64,000 nucleotides of DNA from Entoloma clypeatum (taxonomy: Eukaryota; Basidiomycota; Agaricomycetes; Agaricales; Entolomataceae), in NCBI GenBank assembly GCA_963565915.1, contig OY751496.1, positions 930,001-994,000 on the forward strand, read 5' to 3'. This document shows positions 41,313 through 53,897 of this stretch, in pieces (the first letter of the stretch is position 1; every line of letters begins with the position of its first letter). The position numbers and the translations under genes are program-made. The notes beneath the pieces were generated by a model, which did no database searches, was not told where the DNA came from, and saw only the letters and a program-made list of their open reading frames with translations.

Positions 41313-42923
41313 ATGACGAGGACCTTGACCATGTCGCGCATCGTCTGGGCCGCCTTGGCTTATGGGACCGTCGGTCTTGCGGGTGACCATGGGACCCAAA
41401 GGCGGACTGGGTCTCCTAGTCTCCCTCCACAGACGGTTGTGAGTGCCTCGCATATCCGGCCTTGTTTAGGTGTGATGCTAAAACTCTCGCCCCAGCTCGT
41501 CGATCCCAAATCATTTGCTGTCCTGGAAGAAAACTCCACATTCCGCCAGTCATCCTCCAGCGTCTTCAACCCGGCCTCAACACCACCCCCCTTCTTCCAA
41601 GCATTCGACAAGTCCTTCTATTCCATCCTCGGTCCCACCCCGTCCCTCCGCCAAGTTGCGTCCAACGCCACTTTCGCGTTCGCTCACGAGGCGCCGATAT
41701 ACGACCCCACTACGCACGAGGTGTTCTTCGCCAGCAACGGCGGCGGCGCCCTCGGGATGAGCGACCTCGAGCACAACAACGTCATTGGCAAAATTAGCCT
41801 GGCAGACGTAGACCACGCTATTTCTGCGAACCAGAGCGCCATCAATGTGCCTGTCACCTTTGTCAGTGTGCCCCGTTTCTTGCAATGCAAAGTCGGTTGA
41901 ACGATTTGGCCCTGTTGCGGTTGCGCAGCTAGACTTTCCAGAGACGATTCAAATGACGAACGGCGGGACCGGGCCATACAAATCGTCTCTGCTCCTGATC
42001 ACCTCCGGCCGCGGACCGCGCCCGCCCTCCATCGCCCTCGCGAACCCGAAGCCGCCGTACAACGTCACCGTCTTGCTAAACAACTTTTTCGGACGCCAGT
42101 TTAACTCTCTCAACGACATCAAGGTCCATCCAAAGAGCGGCATGATCTTCTTCACAGACACGGTGTTCGTCGTTCCTACGTTGCCCTCCTCCTTCACGCA
42201 GATTATAAGCCCACGCAGATACGGATACTTGAACCACTTCCGCCCGGAACCTCTCCTCCCCAGCCAAGTATACCGCCTGGACCCCAAGACGCGCACAGTC
42301 CGTGTCGTCGCCACGGGCTTTGACAAGTGCAACGGCATTGCGTTCACTGCTGATGGTCGGACGGCTTATGTGTGCGTCGTCCATGACCTTTCTTGAACTC
42401 CCAGACTTTGTCACTCACAACTCTAAAAGCACGGATACCGGGTCGTTCGGTGGGTTCTTAGGGGTCAACCAAACAGCTCCTGCAACGATGTGTGTTTTTT
42501 TCTTCTCGGCTTCGTGTTCCCTTTATACCAAGACTTTCCCGGTTTGCTAATGGATATCCGCACACCAACCAGCTACGCATTCGAAGTCCACACACGTACA
42601 CAGGCCTTTGTGAACCGCCGCGTGTTCGCGTATATAGACGCCGGAGCCCCCGACGGCATCCAGGTCGATTCAAAGGGCAACGTGTACTCTGGTTGTGGAG
42701 ATGGCGTTCAGGTTCGCAGTTCCTGATCTATATTTGATTTAATCTAAGCTGCAATGTTTCGTAGGTCTGGAACAAGGCGGGTACTTTGATCGGCAAGTTC
42801 TTCCTCGGCACGGTCGCTGCAACCATGGTCTTTGCGAACCCGGGACGTCTGGTCATTTTGGCGGAGACAAAGGTCTTCGTGGCTGATATCGCGGCAAAGG
42901 GTAACGCACTCGTTCCCAGGTGA
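41313..42923 (+). CDS. SMP-30/gluconolactonase-like beta-propeller protein, copy 1
   Basis: Seven exons close exactly (41313-41438, 41496-41861, 41929-42164, 42219-42371, 42430-42489, 42573-42711, 42765-42923; 1239 nt, 412 aa). A short hydrophobic N-terminus (MSRIVWAALAYGTVGLAG from the second Met) could be a signal peptide. Propeller-like segments: APIYDPTTHEVFFAS, FGRQFNSLNDIKVHPKSG, GMIFFTDTVYGYLN, VATGFDKCNGIAFTADGRT and PDGIQVDSKGNVYSGCGDG. The N-D, CNGIAF and DGI(Q)VD motifs match metal- and active-site strands of the SMP-30/gluconolactonase/LRE superfamily, Ca-dependent lactonases that hydrolyse sugar or other lactones. The natural substrate is unknown. Copy 2 is at 45263-46906, about 85 percent similar by eye in the core. 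Confidence 0.85.
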
Positions 42924-43263
42924 TAGCTCAGGCTGTGTTCGTTCTGTAACTCGATTCATGGACTCATGTGCACGTGCGAACACGAGTACTTTGTTCACCC
43001 GGGCCTGTTCCGAGCTTACGCGTGCCGCTTACTGACAATACGACGAAAGAAGCAAGAAAAAGATGACCGAGAAGATTTGTTTTCTCAGCGACTGTTTGCC
43101 ATAGGTGGTGCGATGTCCGGGCCAGCTGTAACTGCGCTTTCTATCCAGCGTAAACCAGCAGTGCGGTTAGCACTTTGCGTTTTGACTTCTGATTCTTGAA
43201 GCACTGTTACATTCCCCCCAGGCCCCTCCCCCGCCCAAGAGTTCTATGTACTAGTGCTAGCGA
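42924..43263. other. 3' flank of SMP-30 copy 1
   Basis: About 340 bases without a supported gene; contains no recognisable aconitase relic, unlike the flanks of the other two units. Confidence 0.4.
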
Positions 43264-50640: not shown

Positions 50641-50951
50641 CTTTGCCAGTTTTAAAAAGTGGACATCACTTCTCGTAATAAGTCGATGTCAATGTTCACT
50701 GAATAGACCAAAGAGCATTTTCACATAGGAATATGCGCACATAAAGACACCTAAGGGCCTTCATTCTGATCCGTTATTTTATTTCTGCCTTCTGCAAAGT
50801 ACAAGGTGCATACTCCGATTGAGTACGGCGAAAAGAGGCGAGACAATGATAATCGAGATGTCTGAAGAAAAAGCATTTTAAAGCCAGTGCTCAGCTACCG
50901 TCGTTCAAACCAAGTCATGACGGAGGGCAACATGGTCCATGTATTTCGAAT

Positions 50952-53897
50952 CTATTGGCCCTTTGCCTTGGCAGCCATCTGTACCAATTCCATCAGCTCC
51001 AAACTTGATTCTGTGAGAAGAAATATACGAACAAGATTGAGAGCAGATCCGGCCTTGAACCACTCAATTTGTCCCTCATTGAAGGAGTGGGCAAGAGGAA
51101 TGTCCTTCAAGTTCGGGGGTAAGCTATCTGCGAAGCGCCAGGATAGAAAACAAACCCATACCTCTGTCGACCCACTCTCATGCTTGATGCGGAGAGTCAA
51201 GTTCTTGCCGGGAGCGAAGCTCTCGAGCCCAAGAACGTCAACGCGGTCCGAGGGCTTAATCTTGTTGTAATCCTCGGGGTCAGCAAACGTTAACGCGAGC
51301 ATTCCCTGCTTCTTCAAGTTGGTCTCGTGGATACGGGCGAAAGAGCGGACAATGATCGCCAATCCTCCAAGGTATCGGGGCTCCAGCGCAGCGTGTTCGC
51401 GTGAAGATCCTTCACCGTAGTTGTGGTCACCGATGACAACCCATTTGATGCCGGCGTCGCGGTAGGCAGCGGCGGTCTGAGGAACACCTCCCCACTCGCT
51501 GGTGACTTGGTTCTTAACCTTGTTTGCCTCATTGTTTTCAGCGTTAATGGCACCAATCAAGCAGTTCTCTGGAGAACACAAAAGGATGATGAGGTTGGTA
51601 TCACACGTTGGATCAGAAGAACGACGTACGAGAGATGTTCTGGAGGTGACCACGGTATTTCAACCACGGTCCACCCGCACTGATGTGATCAGTCGCTATG
51701 AAGAGATGTCATTCATATTGTCCCATTAACAGAATGGACCATACTTACTACACTTGCCGGCGACTTTAATTAGGATGGGGAGGTCGGTAGGGGTCTTTCC
51801 GTCCCAAGGTGCGAAAGGCTCCAAAAGCTGAAGACGATCGCTTGAGGGGTTTACAGCAACTTGGACAGTGAATCGATTCTCAGGAGGAGGCTGGAAAGTA
51901 TCCTGGCCGGGGTCATAGCCACGAGGAGGAAGCTCGTTTCCAGTCGGGTCAGAGAATTTGAAGAGCTTGCCGTCGGAGCCTGTGAGGGAGTCTTTGAGGG
52001 GGTTGAATGTGAGGCTACCCGCAAAGGCCATGGCGGTGACGATGTCAGGAGAAGCCACAAAAGCATGAGTGGCAGGGTTGGCATCATTACGACCGGTGAA
52101 GTTGCGGTTGTAGGAGGTGATGACTTTTGGAAAGTCGTGAGATCATCGTGTGCATGGAAAGAAGAGACTTGAGCATACTAGAGTTGGCCTCGCCCTTCTT
52201 GACGTCTTTCCTGTCCCACTGGCCGATACAAGGTCCGCAAGCGTTAGCTAGAACAAGTCCACCGACGCCTTCAAAGGTATCGATTTGTCCGTCGCGGGCA
52301 ATGGTGGCACGGACTTGCTCAGATCCAGGAGTAATAGTGAACTTGCTCTTGACGTCGAGACCGTGATCGGCAGCTTCCTTGGCAATCGAAGCGGAACGAG
52401 ACATGTCTTCGTAAGACGAGTTGGTGCAGGAGCCGATGAGAGCAACTTTGAGTTCTTCGGGCCAGCTATTCTTCTTGACCTCTTGAGCGAATTTGGAGAT
52501 GGGAGTCGCAAGATCGGGGGTGAAGGGACCGTTAATGTGAGGTTCAAGTTCCGAAAGGTTCTAAAAGTAGAATGTATGAATAATCACACTTCCTGAGACT
52601 GGCAGTGTACTCACGATGTCGATGACTTGGTCGTATTCTGCATTTTCATCTGCTCTCAAATTGTGGGCAAACCGTTGGGCATATTTGGCAATTTCTGGTC
52701 TCTTGGTAGCATTCAGGTAGTCGGTCATGCGGCTGTTGAAAGGGAAGAGAGAAGTAGTTGCGCCGATTTCAGCACCCATGTTGCAAATGGTGGCCATGCC
52801 CGTGCAGGACAACGATTCAAGACCAGGGCCCTTGTACTCAACGATGGCGCCAGTACCACCCTTGACGGTGAGGATGCCCGCGACCTTGAGGATAACGTCT
52901 GCGGGAATAGATAAGCAACAGTCGCAGTATACCATGAATGCGCTTCACCTTTGGGGGTAGTCCATCCACCGATCTTGCCAGTGAGGTTGACGCCGATGAC
53001 GTTGGGGCACTTGAGTTCCCAGGGAATGCCCGCCATAACATCGACAGCATCCGCTCCACCAACACCGCATGCGATCATTCCGAGACCACCGGCGTTAGGT
53101 GTATGGGAGTCGGTGCCAATCATGAGACCGCCAGGGAATGCATAGTTTTCCAGGATGATTTGATGAATAATGCCAGAACCGGGTTTCCAGAAACCAAGAC
53201 CATACTAGAAACAGGTGGTGGGTGTGATGAAATATTGTGAAACAAACTAGCACGAACCTTTGCCGTAGCAGTTGCCAAAAAGTCGTATACTTCCTTGTTG
53301 ATGTTGATAGCACGTTCCAAATCTTTCACGCCTCCAACTTGTGCCTCAATGAGATGGTCACAATGCACGGTTGTGGGAACGGCCGCCGTGTCCATACCAG
53401 CGGACATGAATTGAAGAAGAGCCATCTGTCATATACATGAGTCTAGCCGATGACGTCGTCAACGGCGAATTGATACCTGAGCAGTTGCATCCTGGCATGC
53501 GACTCGCTAGCATAATCCGACGATCAGATACACAAGCATCTCAGAAGAGTAAAGAGGCGCACGTCTGGGCGAAGTTTGAGGTAACTGACACCTCTCTCGA
53601 TGTCTTGGCCATGGGGATCGTCAAGATGACCATACAGAATTTTCTCCGACAACGTCAAAGGGCGCTTCAGCCTTGAGCAAAGTCAGAACAGGCTGGCTAG
53701 GACGAGAATTAAACACACCTATCGCGAACAACAACAAGGTTATCCTCGATACGTTGATAATTGATGTAAGCGCCTTTCTCGAGCAAAGACATGGGGACTT
53801 TAGTATCGCCAATGCGGGGCGCGACGGTGGCCATAGCGGCGGCCAGCCGCTGCAGAGCCCGCGTTGCCTTAGCGGTTCTGTTTGCGAGGTTGAGCAT
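50952..53897 (-). CDS. ACO1: Aconitate hydratase, mitochondrial
   Basis: Minus strand, about nine exons from ATG 53897 to TAG 50952. The N-terminus MLNLANRTAKATRALQRLAA is a mitochondrial presequence. Hallmarks in order: TVHCDHLIEAQVGG, KPGSGIIHQIILENYAFPGG, MIGTDSHTPNAGGLGMIACG (substrate-binding and first cluster-side region), CTGMATICNMGAEIGATTS, GSCTNSSYEDMSR with a cluster Cys, ANACGPCIGQWDR with the other two cluster Cys, ITSYNRNFTGRND, TTDHISAGGPW and GDHNYGEGSSREHAALEPR (swivel domain with the active-site Ser). The enzyme isomerises citrate to isocitrate in the TCA cycle with a [4Fe-4S] cluster and, in fungi, also helps to maintain mtDNA. The last short intron near 51120-51165 could also be read through in frame. 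Two relics of its 3' end lie at 44944-45180 and 47270-47464. Confidence 0.95.

What the first reader, a model, noticed from the sequence alone, without database searches (positions are those of the whole stretch)
41313..53897. Tandem array built from an SMP-30 gene plus the aconitase 3' end
Three units share the order SMP-30 gene, then inverted aconitase 3' end. Unit 1: intact SMP-30 (41313-42923) and an aconitase relic (44944-45180). Unit 2: intact SMP-30 (45263-46906) and an aconitase relic with intron (47270-47464). Unit 3: SMP-30 relic (50536-50640) and the complete aconitase gene. Upstream flanks (40864-40985 against 44683-44765) and downstream flanks (47085-47265 against 50800-51000) match too. 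The simplest history is unequal exchange with break-points inside the aconitase gene, which multiplied the lactonase-like gene and left aconitase tails behind; unrelated genes later filled the spaces.
Basis: seen in the sequence. Interest (0 to 1): 0.8.

Follow-up and report, generated by a model that had tools for sequence, protein, structure and literature searches.

The report
Tandem lactonase genes carrying aconitase tails
In a mushroom-forming fungus, a gene for a lactonase-like enzyme appears to have been copied together with the end of its neighbour, the aconitase gene, leaving two decaying aconitase tails behind; this is a clear fossil of a known kind of gene duplication.

Summary
Two intact 7-exon SMP-30/gluconolactonase genes (SA 41313-42923, SB 45263-46906; 80% identical proteins), a relic of a third (50539-50617), a complete aconitase gene (50952-53897, minus) and two inverted aconitase tails (a1 44929-45182; a2 47073-47465) lie in the order SA, a1, SB, a2, sC, aconitase. 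The tails keep introns or a splice border, so they are DNA copies. Genome searches found no further tail and no further close SMP-30 gene, but they also missed a1, so decayed pieces could be overlooked.

New support: SA and SB are sisters among 27 sampled homologues. In 8 of 21 species named in both protein listings, SMP-30 homologue and aconitase lie on contigs of identical length (8 of 12 Agaricales, 0 of 9 others), so linkage probably predates the array. Relic divergence fits an origin near the SA/SB split.

Against simple units: the repeated upstream flank lies on the wrong side of a1, a1 lacks the last aconitase exon and 3' flank, no junction is preserved, and about 38 bp at SB's start match another contig.

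Best reading: tandem duplication of a convergent pair with a break inside aconitase, like the human RCCX module. A new member of a known kind; interest modest.

The parts
40880..41006 (+). repeated upstream flank, copy 1 (between the fatty-acid desaturase gene and SA)
   Evidence: 84 of 96 ungapped positions identical to 44683-44784; 0 of 200 shuffles
41313..42923 (+). SA: intact SMP-30/gluconolactonase-like gene, 7 exons, 412 aa
   Evidence: gene model with GT-AG introns and no stop; PF08450 75.1 bits against a cut-off of 26.3
43737..44534 (.). dispersed repeat between SA and tail a1
   Evidence: 73% to 7755-8460; its part 44211-44534 84% to C9:1450774-1451089
44683..44784 (+). repeated upstream flank, copy 2; lies before tail a1, not after it
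44929..45182 (-). a1: aconitase tail relic, collinear with 51023-51588 with several deletions; keeps an intron/exon border
45238..45276 (.). stretch of about 38 bp, 95% identical to C10:107754-107791; holds the upstream ATG of SB
   Evidence: its 28-bp core (one base left open) occurs twice in the genome at up to 3 mismatches, reversed control 0
45263..46906 (+). SB: intact SMP-30/gluconolactonase-like gene, 7 exons, 433 aa; intron 1 begins with GC; the in-frame ATG at 45305 could also be the start
   Evidence: PF08450 78 bits
47073..47465 (-). a2: aconitase tail relic (3' flank, last two exons and last two introns with small deletions, part of the third-last exon)
   Evidence: 67% to 50792-51251, E 1e-48; found by genome search; exon borders
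47933..48696 (+). small secreted-type protein gene in the spacer, not part of the repeat
   Evidence: frames read; no Pfam match to its two ORFs
48952..50269 (+). arylamine N-acetyltransferase-like gene in the spacer (start approximate)
   Evidence: PF00797, 28.2 bits against a cut-off of 22.8 for the ORF 49467-50021; homologues 53% over 91-93% of the length
50539..50617 (+). sC: relic of the SMP-30 last exon next to the aconitase 3' end
50952..53897 (-). complete mitochondrial aconitase gene (11 exons modelled; one further small exon expected between 53425 and 53563)
   Evidence: 692 of 787 alignment columns identical to Mycena capillaripes aconitate hydratase

Best explanation
An SMP-30/lactonohydrolase gene and the mitochondrial aconitase gene stood tail to tail (seen here for sC/aconitase and SB/a2; linkage, not orientation, seen in relatives). 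In this lineage a tandem duplication, most likely repeated by unequal exchange, copied the SMP-30 gene together with the 3' end of aconitase (inferred). This gave SMP-30 + tail, SMP-30 + tail, SMP-30 + whole aconitase. Only the aconitase gene that kept its 5' part stayed whole. The two outer SMP-30 genes survived under purifying selection, while the copy next to aconitase died and lost all but part of its last exon. The tails decayed by substitution and many small deletions, and a repeat and other genes came to lie between the units. SB now starts next to tail a1, and the sequence directly upstream of it is not similar to that of SA.
For: Order and homologies. The block 'SMP-30 3' end, spacer, aconitase 3' end' occurs twice with like spacing: 46862 to 47073 and 50617 to 50792. 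The tails carry introns or a splice border. Genome searches returned no other aconitase-tail piece and no other close SMP-30 gene, one distant SGL gene on C12. SA and SB are sisters, 100/99, in a tree with 27 homologues chosen by hand from 120 listed. dN 0.11-0.12 and dS 0.71-1.02. Divergence from the living aconitase is 47 of 206 sites for a1 and 61 of 360 for a2; sC against SB is 15 of 79; SA/SB fourfold sites differ at 71 of 192, so about half of that per branch. SMP-30 homologue and aconitase share a contig length in 8 of 21 species in both listings (8 of 12 Agaricales, 0 of 9 others; Fisher p 0.005).
Against: The repeated flank lies before a1 (44683-44784), whereas tandem units predict it between a1 and SB. 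a1 lacks the last aconitase exon and 3' flank, which are well kept in a2. No tail could be found upstream of SA. The flank pair is 87.5% identical at ungapped positions of a gappy alignment, closer than SA/SB introns (60-70%), so it may have another origin. In 13 of 21 species SMP-30 homologue and aconitase do not share a contig length. Junctions are not preserved, so the mechanism is inferred. The genome searches that found no further tails also missed a1.
Confidence: 0.75

Rival explanations
1. SMP-30 duplicated together with its own upstream flank, and tail a1 is a separate piece of aconitase inserted later between that flank and SB (for example as filler at a repaired break).
For: The order flank-a1-SB. 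Without a1 the flank-to-gene distance in SB would be about 287 bp, near the 300 bp of SA (coordinates). About 38 bp shared with another contig lie beside a1, as filler DNA would.
Against: The other 287 bp of the SB upstream region show no similarity to the SA upstream region (134 of 200 and 73 of 200 shuffles score as well). a1 has the orientation and place that tandem units predict.
Confidence: 0.2
2. The array arose in one complex event (replication template switching) that copied gene and tail pieces together, with no unequal exchange.
For: Mixed order, small pieces and a stretch shared with another contig at 45238-45276. The divergence intervals of a1 and a2 overlap.
Against: The regular S-a-S-a-s-Aco order needs no complex event. 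Point estimates of divergence differ (0.23 and 0.17).
Confidence: 0.1
3. The similarity between tails and aconitase is chance or shared low complexity.
For: None found.
Against: E-values 1e-48 and 3e-11 and shuffles; 306-bp control windows from outside the array reach at most 45.9 against the aconitase 3' end, while the a1 window scores 90.8 and the a2 window 152.1 (330 overlapping controls).
Confidence: 0.01

Closest known systems
Human RCCX module (STK19-C4-CYP21-TNX)
   Same: A gene and the 3' part of a convergent neighbour are repeated in tandem; only the last unit keeps the whole neighbour (TNXB), the earlier one a truncated pseudogene (TNXA), which lies on the opposite strand at the 3' end of CYP21 (PMC8362596, passages read).
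   Different: RCCX modules hold several genes and still vary in number between people; here the units are a few kb and heavily decayed. In RCCX another gene, STK19B, is also cut down to its 3' end by the duplication; here the left break is not resolved.
SMP-30/gluconolactonase/LRE-like family (PF08450), fungal D-lactonohydrolase-like proteins
   Same: SA and SB match over the cut-off; conserved acidic and asparagine positions are kept; best relative Lyophyllum atratum, 74% to SA.
   Different: Nothing found that sets them apart. SB has a longer N-terminus, as do 42 of 120 homologues (at least 15 residues).
Partial gene duplication by tandem duplication with break-points inside genes
   Same: Spontaneous duplications take whole and partial genes together (C. 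elegans lines: 14 duplicated segments with complete and/or partial genes, PMC3857721, passages read).
   Different: Here a tail of the same neighbour is seen twice and can be roughly dated by its decay.

Membership tests
SMP-30/gluconolactonase family (PF08450) | match over the curated Pfam cut-off | tested here: met
   SA 75.1 and SB 78.0 bits, cut-off 26.3
SMP-30/gluconolactonase family (PF08450) | metal-site residues (E, N, N, D; their roles are recalled from SMP-30 and come from no call) | tested here: met
   E of HEAP, N of SLND, N of CNG and D of PDG are present in SA and SB and in 119, 119, 120 and 120 of 120 homologues
SMP-30/gluconolactonase family (PF08450) | six-bladed propeller fold and lactonase activity | not tested
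   no model made; by sequence SA matches two solved gluconolactonases, 3dr2 E 3e-14 and 3e5z E 7e-9; activity needs an assay
Mitochondrial aconitase | full-length homology with open exons | tested here: met
   exons open and joined at splice sites, 692 of 787 columns identical to P0122; one small exon not modelled
RCCX-type tandem module with truncated neighbour | gene plus 3' tail of a convergent neighbour repeated; whole neighbour in the last unit only | tested here: met
   SA-a1, SB-a2, sC-aconitase
RCCX-type tandem module with truncated neighbour | same breakpoint in each unit | tested here: inconclusive
   a1 reaches aconitase 51588 and a2 51251; the ends are eroded
RCCX-type tandem module with truncated neighbour | unit start joined directly to the tail of the unit before | tested here: inconclusive
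   a1 ends 80 bp before the SB ATG and 143 bp before the start of SA/SB homology, but the flank copy is on the far side of a1

The most novel reading that the evidence does not exclude
SB survived the duplication by capturing a new control region: it lost the near promoter that SA uses and is now driven from the dead aconitase tail plus a 38-bp patch shared with another contig that supplies its upstream start codon, so that the pair was kept because of its changed regulation.
Probability: 0.2. Interest if true: 0.45.

Novelty: new member of a known kind. Interest (0 to 1): 0.3.

Why it matters
The tails act as a record of how the lactonase genes were multiplied, and they can be roughly dated against the living aconitase. 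The array shows a case in which the copy next to aconitase died and the outer copies lived. The shared contigs of SMP-30 and aconitase in several Agaricales suggest an old neighbourhood that can be followed in mushroom genomes. None of this needs a new mechanism.

Tried and rejected
A further unit upstream of SA: 41007-41312 was compared with the aconitase 3' end and with a1. Only the long-gap score against aconitase stood out a little (6 of 200 shuffles reach it; 13 of 330 control windows; its reverse complement scores nearly as much), and nothing against a1; rejected as unsupported.

The idea that the repeated flank is aconitase 3' sequence: for the region of copy 1, 125 and 151 of 200 shuffles score as well, and for that of copy 2, 170 and 69 of 200; rejected.

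The idea that the flank is a dispersed repeat: genome searches with 811 bp around copy 1 and with 141 bp around copy 2 found only themselves. These searches also miss the other copy, so weak copies could be missed.

More SMP-30 exons in the spacers: tblastn of SA and SB against the rest of the window gave only sC (E 5e-4 and 8e-4) besides SB's own first 19 residues, which lay inside one spacer as cut; the next best had E 0.17.

Rfam at gathering scores, 40000-54600: no match. tRNA genes near the C10 copy of the 38 bp or in the window: none. Paper searches: 'lactonohydrolase, aconitase, basidiomycete' 0 papers; fungal flanking-gene pseudogene fragments, 77 papers of which 10 were listed, listing only, nothing used.
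Full report
The window lies in a 60 Mb, 20-contig genome (C15:930001-994000). By protein similarity it is a mushroom-forming basidiomycete, probably of the Agaricales: SA is closest to a protein of Lyophyllum atratum (74%), and the aconitase to Mycena and other Agaricales (88-89%; the top hit is an unnamed metagenome protein). No call names the organism.

Observation. SA (41313-42923) and SB (45263-46906) are intact: each has seven exons at matching positions, no stop, and GT-AG introns except SB's intron 1, which begins with GC. 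They share 79.7% of 408 aligned residues. The aconitase gene runs on the minus strand from 53897 to 50952. Tail a2 (47073-47465) covers its 3' flank, last two exons and introns with small deletions, and part of the third-last exon. Tail a1 (44929-45182) follows aconitase from 51023 to 51588 with several deletions. The SMP-30 relic sC (50539-50617) is part of the last exon only. Searches of the whole genome returned no other copy of the aconitase tail and no other close SMP-30 gene; a distant SGL gene is on C12. These searches did not return a1, so other decayed pieces could be missed too.

History. SB-a2 and sC-aconitase are the same junction twice: SMP-30 3' end, a spacer of 174-210 bp, aconitase 3' end. 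So a tail-to-tail pair was duplicated. In a tree with 27 of the 120 listed homologues SA and SB are sisters with support 100/99, so their duplication belongs to this lineage as far as sampled. It is old: dS 0.71 by NG86 and 1.02 by YN00, dN 0.12 and 0.11; fourfold sites differ at 71 of 192, and introns are 60-70% identical. Relics differ from the living aconitase at 47 of 206 (a1) and 61 of 360 (a2) ungapped sites, and sC from SB at 15 of 79. Since the living genes are constrained, about one branch of neutral change is expected, roughly half of the SA/SB distance, and the values fit that. This dating is rough: it ignores silent changes in the living genes and alignment bias.

Relatives. No fungal contigs could be read. 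The listings give the length of the longest contig for each protein cluster. I compared the two listings by eye (best 120 of 1004 and best 120 of 7999 proteins). Twenty-one named species occur in both. In eight the lengths are equal, which I read as the same contig: Tephrocybe rancida (183,975 bases; locus tags DXG01_005444 and DXG01_005447), Amanita thiersii (54,397; AMATHDRAFT_67542 and 67537), Mycena epipterygia, M. vulgaris, M. citricolor, M. filopes, M. venus (11.8 Mb, weak) and Lyophyllum shimeji (1.6 Mb). In thirteen they differ: Asterophora parasitica, Pleurotus ostreatus, Desarmillaria tabescens, Mycena amicta, Dentipellis sp. KUC8613, Trametes polyzona, Ganoderma leucocontextum, Phanerochaete carnosa, Irpex rosettiformis, I. 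lacteus, Trametopsis cervina, Pilatotrama ljubarskyi and Phellopilus nigrolimitatus. A difference may only reflect a fragmented assembly or a cluster drawn from several assemblies. With orders assigned from general knowledge, 8 of 12 Agaricales and 0 of 9 others share a contig (Fisher p 0.005). Linkage of SMP-30 and aconitase is thus probably older than the array; orientation, distance and copy number there are unknown.

What does not fit. The repeated flank (40880-41006 and 44683-44784) is genuine, but its second copy lies before a1, while tandem units would put it between a1 and SB. SA and SB share no detectable sequence between flank and gene. Either a1 was inserted into the SB upstream region, or the flank copy has its own history. 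The flank's 87.5% identity at ungapped positions of a gappy alignment, against 60-70% in introns, suggests constraint or a later copying event. Tail a1 lacks the last exon and 3' flank. Next to a1, about 38 bp with SB's upstream ATG match C10:107754-107791 at 95%, and the 28-bp core was found only at these two places, which looks like captured filler DNA. SB could also start at the in-frame ATG at 45305. A longer N-terminus is not odd in this family (42 of 120 homologues).

Function. Both SMP-30 proteins match PF08450 well over the cut-off and keep conserved polar positions of the family, and pairwise dN/dS is about 0.11-0.17, so both are probably working enzymes, likely lactonases; the hydrophobic N-terminal stretch suggests a membrane anchor or signal segment, which was not tested. 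The substrate is unknown. There is no evidence of a joint function with aconitase.

Comparison. The closest known case is the human RCCX module, where CYP21 is repeated with a truncated tail (TNXA) of the convergent TNXB gene and only the last unit keeps TNXB whole (PMC8362596, passages; RCCX also in PMC7609334, passages). The topology is the same; gene content, size and decay differ. So this is a new member of a known kind of event, well readable but not surprising.

Noticed in passing
58423-64195 (window end plus L039): A Ty1/copia-type LTR retrotransposon with one long open frame (59134-63810), LTRs of about 305 bp with one mismatch and a likely 5-bp target-site duplication; a recent insertion.
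   Followed up: partly
45238-45276 and C10:107754-107791: About 38 bp shared by SB's start and an unrelated place on another contig; the core was found only at these two places in 60 Mb.
   Followed up: partly
48952-50340: The NAT-like gene changes frame at a run of T near its 3' end, so the expected C-terminus (recalled, not from a call) is not read in frame; it may be decaying or a base-call error.
   Followed up: no
7755-8460, 43737-44534 and C9:1450774-1451089: A dispersed repeat of up to about 0.8 kb of unknown type.
   Followed up: partly
50411-50489 and C15:1081055-1081129: A piece of about 75 bp just upstream of sC is 78% like a place about 100 kb away.
   Followed up: no
G000:C12:1975027-1975744: A second, distant SGL-family gene in the genome.
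   Followed up: no
protein listing (no window place): In Infundibulicybe gibba (contig 186,627) and Galerina marginata (contig 1,801,584) two SMP-30 homologues share a contig length, so linked copies may have arisen in other mushrooms too.
   Followed up: no
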